A program made the translations under genes and the position numbers. Source: Bacteroidaceae bacterium (GTDB lineage Bacteria; Bacteroidota; Bacteroidia; Bacteroidales; Bacteroidaceae). From it: 64,000 nucleotides of DNA. Below are positions 55,676 through 63,991 of the stretch, one piece after another. The first letter of the stretch is position 1. The number at the start of each line of letters is the position of its first letter. A model generated the notes under the pieces. The model had not been told where the DNA came from, did not search any database, and saw nothing but the letters and a program-made list of their open reading frames with translations. Where the stretch lies: assembly GCA_017447625.1 (NCBI GenBank), contig JAFSNB010000044.1:178219-242218 (forward strand), read 5' to 3'.

Positions 55676-56553
55676 TCTTTCCATTATGCCGCCACTTTAG
55701 GGATCAGCACATAGTGTAGTGCAAGGTTTATCTCAAATTGACAAAAGTTTAAATGGTTTAAGTAGTTTAAAAGTATAAGTGGTTTCACATATAATTATCA
55801 TAAATTTGTCCATATCATTATTCATTAATGATAAATTAAGGGGTTAATTAACGGCAATTAATGTTGAAGAATAATCCGTTTAATCCGCATAATCCGTTGT
55901 TTGAATATAGCAGCGCGCAGCCAAAAATTGATGCTGGTTCAACACCATTTCGATGCCGTACGAATGGTGGTTTGATGCTGTACGAATGGTGGTTTGATGC
56001 TGTACGATTTTCCAACTGTCAATTATCAATTGTCAATTGTTCCAAGCCCAACTGTCAATTACATCAAGGTGTAAGGTCGATTATATCAAGGTGTAAGTGC
56101 AATTGCATCAAGGTGTATTACCATTTTGCCCAAGGTCAAAAGTGGTTTTGCCCATGGGCAATTTGCATTTTGATGCTGGTCAAAAGAAAATTGGGCCATG
56201 CTATAATGAATCATGAAGAATTGATCTTGACTCATTTTTAAGAGGTATATGATATGTTGCGGAACGGTGTTTTCATGAACATATGTTCGTGGGGCTTTCC
56301 AGATATGTTATAGGGGGGGACCAATGTTTGTGAGCCAATGAACACAAGTTCCCAAAAATGGTTCTTAAACATGGATCATTATACTAGAAAGTCAAGACTT
56401 CCATTGCATAATTATATTTTGTAGGTAATAAACTGGATTGTTAGTGTATTGATGAGTTAAATATGCTTAAAATCGCGTATTTATTTTTGATTTGTGTACT
56501 ATATTCCCAAAATATAGACTACATTTGCAATCGAAAATTAAACATTTATTGCT
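55676..56553. repeat. Repeat-rich intergenic region before the defence-like operon
   Basis: About 880 bp without a convincing gene. It contains 'gtacgaatggtggtttgatgct' units (55957-56008, 22-bp tandem, two and a half copies), 'atcaaggtgtaa' three times (about 56063-56120), 'aatccgtttaatccgcataatccg', and the -7-like TACATTTG at 56520-56527 that probably serves the next operon. GC content drops sharply here. Confidence 0.65.
56520..56527 (+). promoter_or_regulatory. -7 box of the GHKL-methyltransferase operon
   Basis: TACATTTG, 26 bp before the first ATG; the -33 element is not clear. Confidence 0.6.
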
Positions 56554-56793
56554 ATGGCTGAAAATTCTAGACGTAAGAGATTTACTAAAGTTGCTACAAA
56601 TCGAGTTCAGAAAATCATTGATTATCTGAACCTTCTGCAAAATTGTTCTAACCGTAGAAACTACGAGTATGACGAGGATGATGTGAACCATATGTTTGAG
56701 GAAATTTCAAAAGCTCTAAAAGATGCTAAGGCTGTTTATGCTAACGAGCTGAGCAAGGGGAATGGAAAGCCTGGTTTTACCTTTAATAAATAG
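56554..56793 (+). CDS. Small helical protein, first gene of the defence-like operon
   Basis: 79 residues, basic start ('AENSRRKRFTKVATNRVQKIIDYLNLL') then 'NRRNYEYDEDDVNHMFEEISKALKDA'. Predicted two or three helices, no known domain. I have a vague memory of similar small proteins opening GHKL/MORC-type clusters, not strong enough to name a family. It starts right after the promoter and six bases before the ATPase gene, so a regulator or accessory subunit is plausible. Confidence 0.75.
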   Translation: MAENSRRKRFTKVATNRVQKIIDYLNLLQNCSNRRNYEYDEDDVNHMFEEISKALKDAKAVYANELSKGNGKPGFTFNK

Positions 56794-56799
56794 TATTAT

Positions 56800-58839
56800 A
56801 TGGAAATGAAAATTCAACAACTGGACCCAACTGCAAATATGGGACAAGTCGGCTCTTCTGTACTTCGAGCAATACAAAACAATTCTGACCCATTAATAGA
56901 TTTGTTTATAAGAGAATCCATACAAAATAGTTTAGATGCAGGAGATAAAGATATTTCCACACCTTATGTGTGCATTGACTTTATCGTGAAAGAGTTTAAT
57001 GCAAATAAACTAAATCTTTCCTTAGAATGTATTACAGAGAGGTTAAACAATAGGTTCCCAAATGAATTTTATAAGTTTATAGCCGTAAAGGATACAAATA
57101 CAACGGGATTGACAGGACCGTTAAAACGCTCTGAAGTGCGAGACAATAAATACGGCAATTTGCAAAAGCTAGTTTATCATGTTGGTAAACCGCAAGAAAT
57201 ACCTGGTGCTGGCGGTTCATGGGGGTATGGTAAAACGTTGTATTACCGTATCAGCCAAATTGGTCTTGTTATATATTATAGCCGCATAAAGAAAGATGAT
57301 GGCGAATTTGAATCGAGATTGTGTGCAGTAATGTGTGAAAACGAAAAATCTAAAGACGCCATATTGCCACCATATGATGAAAACAATAATAAAAGTGGTA
57401 TTGCCTGGTGGGGTGACATTGATGACAAATCAAACACTTATCCAATCACAGACGAAAATAACATTTTAAATTTTTTGGAAATATTTGGTATTAAACCTTA
57501 TGTAAAAGATGAAGTCGGAACAATTGTTATTATCCCTTATATAAATGAACAAGCTCTCTTAAATGAAAACAGCATTGAGTTAAGTCTTGACCTCGATAAT
57601 GACTCGTTTTTGAATGCTGGAAAATTATCTATAGAAGATGAGTTTAGGGTTGCAATTCAGCGCTGGTACTCTCCTAGACTTAATAATCCGCAATATCAAA
57701 TCCATTATGATAGATGCGGTAAGATAGTTAAGTACTTAAAAGCCTCAATTAATGGTGATGAGATCACTATAGATCAAATGCTGCCAATTTTTAAGCACAT
57801 TCAAGAATTATATAATTGTGCGATTAAGCGCATGGATAACGAAGTAATTTCTAATGAAAATATAGATACAGAGATTATTCAATATTATTCTACTAGTGTC
57901 GGTGTTCTGGCTTATACTCAAATAAAGAAAGAAGAGTTAATTGCTAATGAAAATAGTCCGTATCCGTTCCTTAATATTGATAATTATAATAGACAAGACA
58001 ATATTCCTATTGTTTGCATGACAAGGCAACCAGGAATGATTGTTGAGTATAATCCATCATCGTGGGGTAATCTTCCAGTAACGCATGATGAAGATTTTAT
58101 TCTCGCCTTTTTTGTATTAGATTCAGCACAAAAATTGTCATTTACAGAAGGCGATGTACGTGAAATAGAATTGGAGGAATATGTTAGACAGAGCGAATGC
58201 GCAGATCACCTTGGTTGGCAAGATCATTCCATAGGGAATAATACACGTAAAATTCGGTGTATAGGAAAGATCACAAGTCAATGTTGTAATATTTTGAATG
58301 AGAAGTTCTCAATCAAGACAGAAAATGAAGAGTCAAAGACATTATCAGGACTTAGTGTTCTATTAGGAAAGATTTTGGCAATTCATCCCTCCAAAAAAGG
58401 TACTGGTGGAGGTCATTCCCACAATGATGAAAAGATAAAAGAAGATAATGGAATAAAATATATTATGGATGATGATATTGTCTATTCACAAAATAGTATT
58501 TCATTCACAGTAAAAGCAATGCCCAAATCAAAGTCTAAAGGAGTATCTAAAGCCACTTTACTTCTTGGAACGATGGTTGACTCAAGTTTTGTCGATTGTG
58601 ATAAATGGGAACACGACACGGGGCTTATATCTCCATTTTCTATAGAAAATTATAGTATTAATGATGATCAAAATATTAATGTTTTTTTTGATATCTCATT
58701 AATAAAAACAACTAAACATGGTGAAATATATGGACTTAAATTTACTTCTAAAGACAACCAAAAGCATATGTTCTCAGCCAGTATCACTATTACTATTTCG
58801 CTAAAGAGAAAAGATTTACTTCCTAATATTAAATTCTAG
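56800..58839 (+). CDS. GHKL (HSP90/MutL/MORC-like) ATPase
   Basis: 679 residues. N-box 'RESIQNSLDAG' (Glu39, Asn43, Asp46), G1 box 'VKDTNTTGLTGP' (98-106) and a glycine-rich lid 'AGGSWGYGKTLYY' (137-149) identify the Bergerat fold. Such ATPases clamp DNA or proteins by ATP-driven dimerisation; MORC-like members occur in bacterial modification systems. The following 400 residues are AT-rich, beta-containing and unfamiliar, ending 'ITITISLKRKDLLPNIKF'. No nuclease motif is visible in it. Same strand and 12 bp before the next gene. Confidence 0.82.
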   Translation: MEMKIQQLDPTANMGQVGSSVLRAIQNNSDPLIDLFIRESIQNSLDAGDKDISTPYVCIDFIVKEFNANKLNLSLECITERLNNRFPNEFYKFIAVKDTNTTGLTGPLKRSEVRDNKYGNLQKLVYHVGKPQEIPGAGGSWGYGKTLYYRISQIGLVIYYSRIKKDDGEFESRLCAVMCENEKSKDAILPPYDENNNKSGIAWWGDIDDKSNTYPITDENNILNFLEIFGIKPYVKDEVGTIVIIPYINEQALLNENSIELSLDLDNDSFLNAGKLSIEDEFRVAIQRWYSPRLNNPQYQIHYDRCGKIVKYLKASINGDEITIDQMLPIFKHIQELYNCAIKRMDNEVISNENIDTEIIQYYSTSVGVLAYTQIKKEELIANENSPYPFLNIDNYNRQDNIPIVCMTRQPGMIVEYNPSSWGNLPVTHDEDFILAFFVLDSAQKLSFTEGDVREIELEEYVRQSECADHLGWQDHSIGNNTRKIRCIGKITSQCCNILNEKFSIKTENEESKTLSGLSVLLGKILAIHPSKKGTGGGHSHNDEKIKEDNGIKYIMDDDIVYSQNSISFTVKAMPKSKSKGVSKATLLLGTMVDSSFVDCDKWEHDTGLISPFSIENYSINDDQNINVFFDISLIKTTKHGEIYGLKFTSKDNQKHMFSASITITISLKRKDLLPNIKF

Positions 58840-58851
58840 CAGAATATTATT

Positions 58852-59850
58852 ATGCCTATTAATATTACTACATATCCATCGTTAAACGACAGGATTATGC
58901 AACAGAATAAAGTCTCGATTGATGAGGATTCTTATGAATTGGCTTTTTCTTATGATGTTATCGAAGACGGTGAAACGAAAAATTATCCATTAGAAAAAGA
59001 TAGTAAGAATTCACTTTTTTATCAGTTATGCGACTCACAAGGAGTTTGGACTCCAAATACTCACAACTTAAAAGTATCAGGTGCATTCATTATTACGAAC
59101 CCTATAGGGTTATATGGAGAAAATGGTATCGCTCCAAAAGAATCTTCAATAGGTTTGGCAATAAGGTGGTGCAGTGGAACTTCTAAAAAAAGGGGTGTTA
59201 AATTTATCGGAGATATTAATAAGAGTACAAATAGACAAGAAATTCAATTCTGTGTAGTTTTTAATAAGGCAGAATTAAGAGGTTCTGTAACATTTTATTT
59301 CGAATTGTTCATTAATAGTAATGAATTAGGTACTCAAAATGAGCAACATTTGGCAAATACAAAAGGCACTCTTATCGGTGAAGATCAAATATGTATACTT
59401 GACATTGATGCTAAGGAGCAAAATTTTCCAATCGAATTATTTGATGACCCTGATTCACCCTTGTGGAAATTGTATGTTTCAGAAAATGATCCTCGATTTA
59501 CGCCATGGGGTTTAGATGCAGTGAAAATTCAATTAAATAAAGCACATAAGGATTACAAATATATAAATCAAGATGTCAAAACAAAGTTCTCTCCTGTTTT
59601 GTTGAGAGAAATACTTGCAAGTGCTGTCTCGCTATATATCAACAAACTACAGGAAATTGCAAAGAAATATGAGCAGGAATGTCAAGGTCTACAAGATTTC
59701 CTTAATGATGATACTGATTGGGCACCTGGCTGTGTAGCTGAGGTCGTGAAAGGATTCCAGAGTGAGCCAATGAACATCGATTTTACATCACCTATTGAGA
59801 CATCTATATCCGTACATAAGTATTTTGATTTAAAACTTGGCAATCTATGA
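58852..59850 (+). CDS. Unknown protein of the defence-like operon
   Basis: 332 residues. First two thirds beta-rich ('ELAFSYDVIEDGETKNYPLEKDS', 'GVKFIGDINKSTNRQEIQFCVVF'), then 'FDDPDSPLWKLYVSENDPRFTPWGLDAVKIQLN' and a helical end ('LLREILASAVSLYINKLQEI'). I recognise no family. The spread acidic residues do not form an obvious PD-(D/E)XK site. Its stop overlaps the next start by four bases, so it is likely stoichiometric with that product. Confidence 0.75.
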   Translation: MPINITTYPSLNDRIMQQNKVSIDEDSYELAFSYDVIEDGETKNYPLEKDSKNSLFYQLCDSQGVWTPNTHNLKVSGAFIITNPIGLYGENGIAPKESSIGLAIRWCSGTSKKRGVKFIGDINKSTNRQEIQFCVVFNKAELRGSVTFYFELFINSNELGTQNEQHLANTKGTLIGEDQICILDIDAKEQNFPIELFDDPDSPLWKLYVSENDPRFTPWGLDAVKIQLNKAHKDYKYINQDVKTKFSPVLLREILASAVSLYINKLQEIAKKYEQECQGLQDFLNDDTDWAPGCVAEVVKGFQSEPMNIDFTSPIETSISVHKYFDLKLGNL

Positions 59851-60563
59851 TTATACAAACATTATCTAGATCACAATCAAAGGATGCGTTTGAACGCATT
59901 CAGGAGAATAGTGATTTTACATCAATTGATTGGTCTAATCGACTGGATAGTGATTACTTAGTCATTATAAATTATTTGGTGGAGAAATATTTTGAGCTGA
60001 AACAATCAGGTTATAAGGACTATCAACTTGATTATAGGTTCTCTTTGTTGTTTTACGACTATTTCCATCAAAAGGAATGGATGACCGATAGAATTGCTGC
60101 AGATTATGAGTTTTGGAGCTATTTTGCTTTAATAGTAATACCTGATTTGGTGTTTGACAGATTTGGAGCAGACGATGACAAACACTATTATGCAAAAGGT
60201 TTACGAATTTGGCCATATACTTTATATTGGTATACCCATTTGGCTTGGCAGGGAAATGTTGAGTCAACTAATAAAATATTGTCATCTTCTCGTTGCTGCT
60301 CTGATACGATATTAAATCTAGTAGAACGACCAGGAAGAAATGGCACGTATATTAGTATGTATAGAAGCATAATGTTTTATTTTGTCAACTGCAATCCTAC
60401 TAAAGAGGTTGATAATATAAAACTTTTTAGAAGCATAATGAAATTGGCCTTAGCTAAGCCATTAGTAATCGATCCTGATTTGTGTTCTGGTGGTCCTAGT
60501 GAGTATGCAAAAGAAATAGTACAAGAGTGTGTCGATAAAATTGATTTCACTTTAAAAGAATAA
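59847..60563 (+). CDS. DUF6339-like protein
   Basis: 238 residues. 'MTDRIAADYEFWSYFALIVIPDLVFDRFG', 'LRIWPYTLYWYTHLAWQG' and 'DTILNLVERPGRNGTYISMYRSIM' (parts) resemble DUF6339, an uncharacterised family reported beside methyltransferase genes. Mostly helical and rich in aromatic residues. Coupled by ATGA to the gene before it and two to eight bases from the methyltransferase. Confidence 0.65.
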   Translation: MIIQTLSRSQSKDAFERIQENSDFTSIDWSNRLDSDYLVIINYLVEKYFELKQSGYKDYQLDYRFSLLFYDYFHQKEWMTDRIAADYEFWSYFALIVIPDLVFDRFGADDDKHYYAKGLRIWPYTLYWYTHLAWQGNVESTNKILSSSRCCSDTILNLVERPGRNGTYISMYRSIMFYFVNCNPTKEVDNIKLFRSIMKLALAKPLVIDPDLCSGGPSEYAKEIVQECVDKIDFTLKE

Positions 60564-60571
60564 TAGTGTTT

Positions 60572-61903
60572 ATGCAAGAACTAAAAGTTGCCACAGTTTT
60601 TAGTGGCATTGGAGCTATAGAAGAATCTTTGAAGCAGTTAAATATTAGTCACATAATAAAATTTGCTTGTGATAATGGAGAAAGAGAACCAAAAACTGAT
60701 TTAAGAACATTATATAAAGTTGCAAAGAGTGTTTTGTCTGAATCTAAAGCGGAAGATTTAATAAGATTATATATTAATATTATTTTTACAAAAAGAAAAA
60801 TCAGAAATGCGGTTTTAGAGGAAGATGTTCATAATCTATATAAAGAGATAAGACCGTTAGATATCAAGGCTGCTATTAAGAAAATAGACACCTTGGATGA
60901 TATGTCTTTTGAGGGAGAAACTGTCAAATTTAAATTAAGGTATGAAGAAATTGCAGAAGCCAAAAACATCCTAAACGAGGATGAAGTGCATAATTTCGTA
61001 GAAGAATGGTATGCGACAACAAGAATACCAAACTCTGTTAAGAAATCGTATTTGGCCAACTACCAAATAGAAAACAATGCTTGGTACGAAGATGTCCGTT
61101 TTTTGGATGGAAAGCAATATAATGGCTCTGTTGATCTTTTTTGTGGTGGCAGTCCGTGCCAAAGCTTCTCTACTTATGGCAAGAAGAAAGGGCTTGAAGA
61201 CGCACGAGGAACTTTGTTCTATGATTATGCCAGGTTGATTAAAGAAATTAGTCCTAAAGTATTTATATATGAAAATGTAAAGGGGTTGTTAACTCACGAT
61301 AAGGGACGAACATGGGAAATAATAAAGAATATTTTTAAGAAACTTAATTATAAGATATACCATAAAGTTCTAGATGCACAAGATTATGGATTACCACAAA
61401 TGAGAGAACGTATCTTCGTGGTTGGCATTAGAAATGATATAGCGAAGAAGGCAAGTTTTCAATTTCCTCCTCCAATACAATTGACAAAAACAAGTAGAGA
61501 TTATCTAGATACAGATGTAGATAATATTTATTATTTGGGGCAAAAGGGGTTTGAATGGGCGACATCTAAATCAAAAAACAAAAATAAAACAAGGGTAAAT
61601 AGAGATATAATAGGATGCCAAACTGCTAATCAGCAAGACAATTGGATTGGTGATTTACGTGTGGAATATCCTCAGCAAAGACATTATAATGATCCTCGAA
61701 TTTATATTGGCGAATATGAGGGCCATCCTGCTGTAGCCAGAAAGATGACACCCAATGAATGTGTTAGACTTATGGGTTTCGAACATTTTAAAATTGTAGT
61801 TAACGATATTAGGATGTATAGGCAGGCAGGTAATTCCATCGCTGTTCCAGTATTAAATGCACTCATAAAACAACTTCTGCCCTTTTTTGATCTTGAAGAA
61901 TAA
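60572..61903 (+). CDS. DNA (cytosine-5) methyltransferase with large internal insertion
   Basis: 443 residues from ATG 60572 (GTG 60566 also possible). Motif I 'ATVFSGIGAIEESLKQL', motif IV 'FCGGSPCQSFSTYGKKKGL' with catalytic Cys at about residue 196, motif VI 'FIYENVKGLL', motif VIII 'QDYGLPQMRERIFVVGI', motif IX/X 'LMGFEHFK' and 'YRQAGNSIAVPVLNALI'. Catalytic Cys normally lies near residue 75-80: about 120 extra, helical, charged residues (about 35-165) separate motif I from motif IV. The target recognition domain between VIII and IX is short. Methylates a DNA sequence that cannot be read from the protein. Confidence 0.9.
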   Translation: MQELKVATVFSGIGAIEESLKQLNISHIIKFACDNGEREPKTDLRTLYKVAKSVLSESKAEDLIRLYINIIFTKRKIRNAVLEEDVHNLYKEIRPLDIKAAIKKIDTLDDMSFEGETVKFKLRYEEIAEAKNILNEDEVHNFVEEWYATTRIPNSVKKSYLANYQIENNAWYEDVRFLDGKQYNGSVDLFCGGSPCQSFSTYGKKKGLEDARGTLFYDYARLIKEISPKVFIYENVKGLLTHDKGRTWEIIKNIFKKLNYKIYHKVLDAQDYGLPQMRERIFVVGIRNDIAKKASFQFPPPIQLTKTSRDYLDTDVDNIYYLGQKGFEWATSKSKNKNKTRVNRDIIGCQTANQQDNWIGDLRVEYPQQRHYNDPRIYIGEYEGHPAVARKMTPNECVRLMGFEHFKIVVNDIRMYRQAGNSIAVPVLNALIKQLLPFFDLEE

Positions 61904-62078: not shown

Positions 62079-63776
62079 ATGAAATATAACCTAAAAGAAC
62101 TTGTTGCTTCAATGTGGGAGCATAGAGAAAAAAAGGATTTTGGACGGAAAGGTCTGGAAACAACTTATCGTGGGTTATCTGTAAAAGCGAGTATTGGAAT
62201 GACTGGTAATATTTCAAAGATTCCATGGATTTCATATTGCGCAGAAGGTCAAGAAACACAAAAAGGGATTTATCCTGTACTTCTTTTTTATGGCACAACA
62301 GAATTTGTTCAAAAAAACAAGAACAAAGAGAAAGTAAGAAAAATAGTGTTGGCCTATGGAGTAAGTGCTAACAAGAAACCTGATATCCTTTGGGGAACAG
62401 AAGTTGATGGCAAGATAACGATAAAAGAGGCTTTTAAAGAATGGAACTACAATACGTCTGATGCTGGAATAAAGAAATATAATTCTTCATACGTATATAA
62501 AATATACGAATGGACAGACAATGTGAATTATGCTCTAATTCAGGAAGATATTGATAAATTAATTAATACGTATGTGAGTTTATTAGGATGTTATATAAAT
62601 GATTCGAGTGCTGACGCAATTAAAGACATTATTAAGGAAACACAGAATGCTCCAACAGAATCTTTTTCCATCAAAAAAATAATTGGTCATATCAAGGAAA
62701 CAGGATTGCTTTACACCGATTCGCTGGTGAAACGTTTTGCTTTCTCTTTGATGTCGAAGCGGTTTCTAATACTGAGTGGTCTGGCTGGTTCAGGTAAGAC
62801 GCAATTGGCTCTGGCGTTCGCAAGTGCGTTGGTAAAGAACAAGGACAGGCAGATGTGCGTGGTGAGTGTTGGTGCCGACTGGACGAATCGGGAGCCGCTT
62901 TTGGGATTCCCCAATGCATTGCAGCCAGAGAAGTACGTGAAGCCAGAGAGCGGTGTATTGGACCTGCTGATAGAGGCGAATCGCGAGGAGAATGCAGAAA
63001 AACCGTTCTTCCTGATACTGGACGAGATGAACATGAGCTATGTGGAGCGTTACTTCGCAGACTTCCTGTCTGCAATGGAGAGCAAGGAGAAAATCAGCTT
63101 GTGGAATAGTGATACGGAATGTGACAAAGTGATTGACGGTGTGCCGCAGCGCATTGACCTGCCAAAGAATCTCTTTATTATTGGTACCATCAACGTGGAC
63201 GAGACGACGTATATGTTCTCGCCCAAGGTGCTGGACAGAGCCAACGTGATAGAGTTTAAGATTTCGTCAAAGGAGATGGGTACGTTCCTGCAGGAAATGC
63301 GTGAGATAGACCGCGACAGCATTATCAGCAAGGCAGCTGGAATGGGAGCAGACTTTGTGGCAAAGGCTTGTAAGAAGGACCTGGCTCAGGACGACGAGGC
63401 GGTGAAGATGCTGCAGAAGTTCTTTGACGAGCTGAAGAACGTGAATGCTGAGTTCGGTTACCGCTCGGCAACAGAGATATTCCGCTTTATCTGTCAGGCA
63501 AAGGCCAACGATGATACAGGTGAAAAGATGACTGACGAGGAGATTCTGGATGCAGCCATCGTGCAGAAACTGCTGCCCAAGCTGCATGGTTCGCGAAAGA
63601 AGCTGGAGCCTGTGCTAGCCCAACTTTGGAAGCTTTGCTTTACGGGTGCTGGTAAGGATCTGAATATTGCTAAAGAGAACGTGGAGAAGGCCCAATACAA
63701 AGAGAGTGCCGACAAGATACGTCGCATGTATGAGTCGGCAACGGCGAATGGATTCACCAGTTTTGCAGAAGCGTAA
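62079..63776 (+). CDS. McrB-like AAA+ GTPase with N-terminal recognition domain
   Basis: 565 residues. Residues 1-150 resemble the MrcB N-terminal domain ('GRKGLETTYRGLSVKASIG', 'YPVLLFYGT', 'VLAYGVSANKKPDILWG') that recognises modified DNA. The AAA+ motor has Walker A 'LSGLAGSGKTQLAL' (234-241), 'DWTNREPLLGF', Walker B 'PFFLILDEMNMSYVERYFADFL' and the McrB-type nucleotide motif 'GTINVDETTYMFSPKVLDRA'. In McrBC systems it translocates and activates the McrC nuclease; no McrC follows in the 220 bp left. The first 620 bp are AT-rich like the upstream genes and the rest near 50% GC, a sharp break near 62700. Confidence 0.88.
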   Translation: MKYNLKELVASMWEHREKKDFGRKGLETTYRGLSVKASIGMTGNISKIPWISYCAEGQETQKGIYPVLLFYGTTEFVQKNKNKEKVRKIVLAYGVSANKKPDILWGTEVDGKITIKEAFKEWNYNTSDAGIKKYNSSYVYKIYEWTDNVNYALIQEDIDKLINTYVSLLGCYINDSSADAIKDIIKETQNAPTESFSIKKIIGHIKETGLLYTDSLVKRFAFSLMSKRFLILSGLAGSGKTQLALAFASALVKNKDRQMCVVSVGADWTNREPLLGFPNALQPEKYVKPESGVLDLLIEANREENAEKPFFLILDEMNMSYVERYFADFLSAMESKEKISLWNSDTECDKVIDGVPQRIDLPKNLFIIGTINVDETTYMFSPKVLDRANVIEFKISSKEMGTFLQEMREIDRDSIISKAAGMGADFVAKACKKDLAQDDEAVKMLQKFFDELKNVNAEFGYRSATEIFRFICQAKANDDTGEKMTDEEILDAAIVQKLLPKLHGSRKKLEPVLAQLWKLCFTGAGKDLNIAKENVEKAQYKESADKIRRMYESATANGFTSFAEA

Positions 63777-63819: not shown

Positions 63820-63873
63820 ATGGGAATGAAGAGATATACAATAGTGGAACTGCAACAGATTGTACTACCCTAG
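63820..63873 (+). pseudogene. 17-codon reading frame cut off by repeat region
   Basis: ATG 63820 opens 'MGMKRYTIVELQQIVLP' and stops in TAG at 63871, which is part of the first copy of the 18-bp repeat. It looks like the 5' end of a longer gene interrupted by the repeat block. No family can be named from 17 residues. Confidence 0.35.
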
Positions 63874-63991
63874 AAAAAGTTGAATGGTTTTTAACTTAAC
63901 CCTGCCAAAGGTTGAATGCCTGTTTGGTACCTTAATCCTTATCCCTGGCAGAAGTTGAATCATTCTCTCTTAACCCTTGTTTTTGTTGAAC
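63868..63991. repeat. Four copies of an 18-bp motif, CCCTGGCAGAAGTTGAAT type
   Basis: Copies start at 63868, 63900, 63943 and 63974 (spacing 32, 43, 31): each is CCCT + 7 variable bases + GTTGAAT/C. The spacers are T-rich and unrelated. Runs to the window end. Possibly iterons or the end of a mobile element. Confidence 0.7.

What the first reader, a model, noticed from the sequence alone, without database searches (positions are those of the whole stretch)
56554..61903. Five-gene AT-rich operon: small protein, GHKL ATPase, unknown, DUF6339-like, m5C methyltransferase
The genes are tightly packed (gaps of 6, 12, -4 and 2-8 bp), on one strand, about 33% GC against about 50% in the core. A Bergerat-fold ATPase with a DNA cytosine methyltransferase recalls the MORC/MutL-containing modification systems described by Iyer and Aravind. 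Here no helicase, Z1 or recognisable nuclease gene is present, and two proteins have no known function. This may be a defence system in which the effector is one of the two unknown proteins. GHKL, methyltransferase and co-orientation are seen; defence is inference.
Basis: partly seen in the sequence, partly recalled or inferred. Interest (0 to 1): 0.85.

Follow-up and report, generated by a model that had tools for sequence, protein, structure and literature searches.

The report
Clamp-ATPase add-on to methylation defence
A bacterial genome carries a compact, mobile set of five genes that pairs a MORC/MutL-like ATPase and its partners with a DNA methyltransferase; related sets sit beside many different DNA-cutting defence enzymes, so this is probably an accessory module of restriction-modification, here with no recognisable cutting enzyme of its own.

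Summary
The five genes are real, intact and co-oriented (56554-61903). They behave as one mobile unit: a Prevotella MAG (L007) has the same five, 85.8% identical over window 56495-61881; no other window DNA matches its 19 kb, and dN/dS is 0.016-0.185. The ATPase carries Bergerat motifs plus the ExxxH signature of paraMORC2 (22 of 22 relatives checked). In 26 copies from 23 loci, bacterial and haloarchaeal, 23 keep the order ATPase, one ORF, DUF6339-like protein; 1 lacks DUF6339 support and 2 are cut. This is PADLOC's untested candidate PDC-M33. The trio sits beside varied R-M parts: C5 methylase in 18 of 23 loci, a recognised nuclease in 14 (Vsr alone in 3). The 332-aa protein links to PDC-M33B only weakly. 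Best reading: an ATP-driven clamp or looping accessory that helps a methylation-guarded nuclease act on unmarked DNA. Activity is inferred; no structure could be predicted.

The parts
56554..56793 (+). 79-aa protein; same family as the small protein before the ATPase in L007, L023, L024, L034, L035 and L036
   Evidence: dN/dS 0.016 against L007
56800..58839 (+). GHKL (Bergerat) ATPase of paraMORC2 type, PADLOC PDC-M33A-like; REx2QNx2D at 38, DxxTxGL at 98, GxxGxGK at 139-145, ExxxHxxW at 466
58852..59850 (+). 332-aa middle protein, in the position of PDC-M33B; sequence relatives found only in L007 and, at 23-28%, in L008
   Evidence: weak profile link to PDC-M33B
59847..60563 (+). 238-aa divergent DUF6339-like protein, in the position of PDC-M33C
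60566..61903 (+). C5 cytosine DNA methyltransferase with an extra stretch of about 115 residues before the PCQ motif; best solved match M.HhaI
56495..61881 (.). extent of the mobile block shared with L007 7644-13030 (85.8% DNA identity); no other match between the window and L007
62079..63776 (+). McrB-like AAA ATPase (PDC-M26A 1.8e-49), possible restriction subunit; outside the block shared with L007; first third 32.7% GC, the rest 48-50%

Best explanation
[not shown]
For: Shared five-gene block with dN/dS below 0.2 in every gene and unrelated flanks. ATPase, one ORF and DUF6339-like gene in that order in 23 of 26 copies from 23 loci; in 1 (L020) the third gene is in place without DUF6339 support, 2 are cut by the stretch edge. 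C5 methylase in the held stretch of 17 of 23 loci, 18 counting L035 where it is cut. A recognised nuclease gene in 14 of 23 loci: L008, L009, L019, L020, L024, L023, L025, L026, L034-L036, L046-L048; L019, L020 and L023 have Vsr only. Same genus: L046 trio, methylase, McrB-like, RE_LlaJI; L047 trio, methylase, PDC-M26A McrB-like, DUF2357/PDDEXK_7. The window's McrB-like protein is PDC-M26A too and aligns with that of L047, E 1e-22. The window methylase's best plasmid relatives (42%) belong to LlaJI systems. paraMORC2 signature in 22 of 22 copies checked against 14 of 2000 shuffles. In LlaJI the McrB-like R1 sets specificity and R2 is believed to cut (PMC1459862, abstract read).
Confidence: 0.55

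Rival explanations
1. Self-contained defence system: the effector is inside the five genes, most likely the DUF6339-like or the 332-aa protein acting as a nuclease or another toxin when the ATPase senses unmethylated or phage DNA.
For: The selected, mobile unit is exactly these five genes. No nuclease was recognised beside L007's copy. Six DUF6339-like proteins share D100, R105 and R161.
Against: A separate nuclease gene is recognised in 14 of 23 loci, 3 with Vsr only. No nuclease family matched either protein in Pfam, PADLOC, NCBIfam or PHROGs. In another set of ten DUF6339-type proteins only the start Met and one Trp are invariant. Folds could not be predicted.
Confidence: 0.2
2. Nuclease-free silencing: the ATPase complex traps or compacts unmethylated foreign DNA, as eukaryotic MORCs are thought to do, and the methylase exempts host DNA.
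For: Two copies without a recognised linked nuclease, conserved by purifying selection. paraMORCs and MORC belong to one radiation (PMC2292703, parts 1-3 of 4 read).
Against: 14 of 23 related loci have a nuclease; unlinked nucleases cannot be excluded, and both genomes encode an unlinked Vsr; the window contig ends before the locus is complete.
Confidence: 0.1
3. Remnant or retuned locus: the restriction part was lost, leaving a methylase and ATPase with an epigenetic or anti-restriction role.
Against: All five genes, not just the methylase, show dN/dS below 0.2.
Confidence: 0.12

Closest known systems
PADLOC candidate PDC-M33 (A, B, C)
   Same: Gene order and families: GHKL ATPase, middle protein, DUF6339; the window ATPase hits PDC-M33A; relatives in the same order hit A, B and C.
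   Different: The window's 332-aa protein does not hit PDC-M33B and the 238-aa protein does not hit PDC-M33C directly; a methylase and a small protein are built into the shared block.
paraMORC2 R-M neighbourhoods (Iyer, Abhiman, Aravind 2008, PMC2292703)
   Same: GHKL motifs, ExxxH signature, association with C5 methylases, Vsr, helicases and RE-fold nucleases.
   Different: No helicase or RE-fold nuclease in the five genes; the text read (parts 1-3 of 4; figures not held) does not describe the small, middle or DUF6339 partners.
[not shown]
LlaJI restriction-modification (PMC1459862)
   Same: C5 methylase related at 42%; McrB-like gene downstream; L046 is a trio plus LlaJI-type set.
   Different: The window's McrB-like protein is PDC-M26A type, only weakly similar to LlaJI ATPases; no R2 nuclease seen.
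paraMORC3/Shedu VcSduA (PMC12137116, passages read)
   Same: A GHKL ATPase proposed to control a PD-(D/E)XK nuclease in anti-phage defence.
   Different: There ATPase and nuclease are fused in one protein with phage protection measured; here the ATPase is separate and untested.

Membership tests
paraMORC2 GHKL ATPases | Intact GHKL ATP-binding motifs | tested here: met
   REx2QNx2D, DxxTxGL and GxxGxGK in the window protein. Of 22 copies checked by pattern, L036 lacks the strict motif I
paraMORC2 GHKL ATPases | Conserved ExxxH in the C-terminal part of the S5 domain | tested here: met
   ExxxHxxW in 22 of 22 trio ATPases checked (of 26 copies) and in 0 of 4 other neighbouring proteins; 14 of 2000 shuffles. 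Only the motif was tested, not its place in an S5 fold
paraMORC2 GHKL ATPases | S5 fold after the GHKL domain | not testable with these tools
   structure prediction switched off
PADLOC PDC-M33 | PDC-M33A | tested here: met
   4.9e-10, residues 33-170 only
PADLOC PDC-M33 | PDC-M33B | tested here: not met
   no hit; profile comparison 0.7% and 12.1% with a larger set, score 29.9 against at most 20.6 in 42 control pairs
PADLOC PDC-M33 | PDC-M33C / DUF6339 | tested here: inconclusive
   no direct hit; profile-profile 96.3%, E 1.4e-9, 94, 89, 82, 17 and 0.2% to five groups; model hit E 0.007
[not shown]
   no hit in G000 and G594
[not shown]
   no hit in G000 and G594
LlaJI-type R-M | C5 methylase | tested here: met
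   (LlaJI itself has two; one seen here)
LlaJI-type R-M | McrB-like R1 subunit | tested here: inconclusive
   McrB-like gene adjacent, but PDC-M26A type and outside the shared block
LlaJI-type R-M | R2 PD-(D/E)XK nuclease | tested here: not met
   RE_LlaJI not found in G000 or G594; the contig ends 224 bp after the McrB-like gene, so a gene beyond it is not excluded

The most novel reading that the evidence does not exclude
A nuclease-free, methylation-guarded silencing system: the paraMORC2 complex recognises DNA lacking the cassette's own cytosine mark and entraps or compacts it, so that incoming DNA is not expressed or replicated, a bacterial counterpart of MORC silencing. It fits an exact five-gene unit kept by selection, with no recognised linked nuclease in L007.
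Probability: 0.1. Interest if true: 0.88.

Novelty: new variant of a known kind. Interest (0 to 1): 0.52.

Why it matters
paraMORC ATPases were proposed in 2008 to loop DNA in restriction-modification (PMC2292703) and are relatives of the eukaryotic MORC proteins. The trio ATPase-middle-DUF6339 looks like a plug-in found with at least seven kinds of nuclease, so a minimal five-gene cassette without one makes a direct test possible: does a MORC-like clamp restrict DNA by itself, or does it license a nuclease? In the held library no paper has DUF6339 or PDC-M33; 'paraMORC' is in 7, of which I opened three.

Tried and rejected

Rows dropped or not opened: of 14 plasmid records, five of the six Lactococcus records were not opened. 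Of the small-protein hits, eight were opened. L029 is a near copy of L010 (89% ATPase identity), L027 is 83-84% identical in DNA to L030, and L009 and L028 are one plasmid; they are counted as separate loci. Models used contain some of the sequences they find; L022, L034-L036, L046 and L047, L048 were not in the ATPase, middle or DUF6339 models (L036, L046 and L048 methylases were in the methylase model). The middle gene is recognised by a model in 17 of 24 uncut copies (4 of them, window type, by construction; 6 more were in the PDC-M33B-type model) and by position only in 7 (L009, L010, L020, L027, L028, L029, L030). Copies with a broken gene: L022, L029, L034. In one search ORFs were thinned by length, which hid the middle gene of L048 and the Vsr frame of L049; one search recovered the former, one search shows the latter.

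Full report
WHAT IS THERE. The window is the right-hand end of contig C35 of an unnamed, 73%-complete genome. A sixth co-oriented gene, a McrB-like AAA ATPase (62079-63776), follows after 175 bp.

A UNIT OF FIVE. A scan of genome contigs with the 332-aa protein gave one relative, in a Prevotella MAG from roe deer omasum (L007, 83% identity). It carries the same five genes in order. DNA similarity between the whole window and L007's 19 kb is one block, window 56495-61881 (85.8%, 5397 positions): it starts 59 bp before the small gene and stops 22 bp before the end of the methylase gene. All five genes are intact in both, dS 0.52-0.76, dN/dS 0.016, 0.153, 0.185, 0.086 and 0.103. The flanks are unrelated: downstream the window has the McrB-like gene, L007 an SLFN/AlbA_2 protein with an HTH and a DUF5677 protein. 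So the five genes move and are conserved together. Only these two copies of the full five were found.

THE ATPASE. Pfam and NCBIfam give no family; PADLOC gives PDC-M33A, 4.9e-10 over residues 33-170. Alignment of 15 relatives shows invariant R38-E39-xx-Q42-N43..D46, D98-xx-T101-x-G103, G139-xx-G142-x-G144 and E466-xxx-H470-xx-W473. ExxxHxxW is present in 22 of 22 trio ATPases checked (of 26 copies), in 0 of 4 other neighbouring proteins and in 14 of 2000 shuffles of the window protein. Iyer and colleagues (PMC2292703, parts 1-3 of 4 read; [quoted passage not shown]

THE PARTNERS. I examined 26 ATPase copies in 23 loci. In 23 the order is ATPase, one ORF, DUF6339-like protein. In L020 the third gene is in place but Pfam finds nothing and its profile matches no DUF6339 group above 2.7%. 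Two copies are cut by the edge of the stretch. Most loci came through the ATPase, L008 through the middle protein, L007 likewise, and L034-L036 through the small protein. PADLOC's PDC-M33B model hits 7 of 14 genomes or records tested, at the middle gene, so the trio is PADLOC's candidate PDC-M33. In 7 of the 24 uncut copies the middle gene is assigned by position only. The window's 238-aa protein is a divergent DUF6339: no Pfam hit but 96.3%, E 1.4e-9 by profile comparison, and 94, 89, 82, 17 and 0.2% against five separate groups. The 332-aa protein is not recognised by PDC-M33B. Its profile scores 29.9, 30.5, 26.9 and 30.9 against four other middle groups and 19.0 and 14.6 against two, where 42 unrelated control pairs reach at most 20.6; probabilities are 0.2-20%, and 0.7% in a first comparison. 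Distant homology is suggested, not shown. The 79-aa protein has relatives before the ATPase in L007, L023, L024, L034, L035 and L036, so it is a fourth, less constant member: 7 of 23 loci with the window, three of them found by searching with it. Of eight records opened because of it, three carry the trio (L034-L036), three carry it before a 615-621-aa protein with weak HATPase hits below the curated cut-off (L031-L033), two neither.

HOW IT MOST LIKELY WORKS. The methylase marks host DNA; the paraMORC2 dimer closes on DNA with ATP; the small, middle and DUF6339 proteins load it, read a feature of the DNA or bridge it to a cutter; the cutter is the R-M nuclease at hand. Methylase chemistry and ATP-binding motifs follow from family; partnership follows from conserved order; dimer, clamp action, recognition and defence are inferred. 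I give this 0.55. Rivals are an effector within the five genes (0.2), a remnant or epigenetic role (0.12) and nuclease-free silencing (0.1).

FREQUENCY. The ATPase profile matched 5 of 395 genomes of the class and 4 of 139 of the genus, own included; PDC-M33B 3 of 395, all three next to an ATPase. The 332-aa protein matched 2 of 395 genomes of the phylum, own included, besides L007. The window-type middle and DUF6339 models find nothing among the thinned ORFs of the same-genus loci, and the nearest ATPases after L007 in the alignment are those of L008, at 28-31%: this branch is rare and probably came by transfer (inference).

LITERATURE. No paper in the held library has DUF6339 or PDC-M33. 'paraMORC' is in 7; I opened PMC2292703 (parts 1-3), PMC8011034 (passages) and PMC12137116 (passages), the last on VcSduA, a GHKL-Shedu fusion active against phages. 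Two searches on GHKL or MORC with anti-phage terms listed 1 and 5 papers, none of which I recognised from the listing as treating this trio. A paper using PADLOC's PDC labels (PMC11514479, passages) does not contain DUF6339 or GHKL. Subscription journals and preprints are mostly not held.

Noticed in passing
window 62079-63776: The McrB-like gene is a composition mosaic: first third 32.7% GC, later thirds 48-50%, as if the N-terminal half and the AAA half have different origins; relatives in L046, L047 and L049 show smaller steps.
   Followed up: partly
window 63867-63961: Three imperfect 20-nt repeats (reference ACCCTAGAAAAAGTTGAATG) just before the contig end; repeated DNA may be why the assembly stops.
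   Followed up: no
L049 (G000 contig C38): Second C5 methylase, McrB-like, DUF2357/PDDEXK_7 set with Vsr in the same genome, without the trio.
   Followed up: partly
L031, L033: The small-protein family also precedes a HATPase-like ORF followed (L033: after one more gene) by ATP-binding and UvrD-like genes, which recall Gabija (name recalled, not tested).
   Followed up: no
L029, L010: In haloarchaeal plasmids the trio lies near phospholipase D (in L029 also helicase and Zn-binding) genes and a C5 methylase, an arrangement that recalls DISARM (recalled, not tested).
   Followed up: no
[not shown]
   Followed up: partly
L007 13176-15775: AlbA_2/HTH protein and DUF5677 protein directly after the methylase; possibly an alternative partner pair.
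   Followed up: no
window 60566-61903: About 115 extra residues before the PCQ motif of the methylase: M.HhaI aligns from query 189 to its own residue 72; the position of motif I in M.HhaI is recalled.
   Followed up: no
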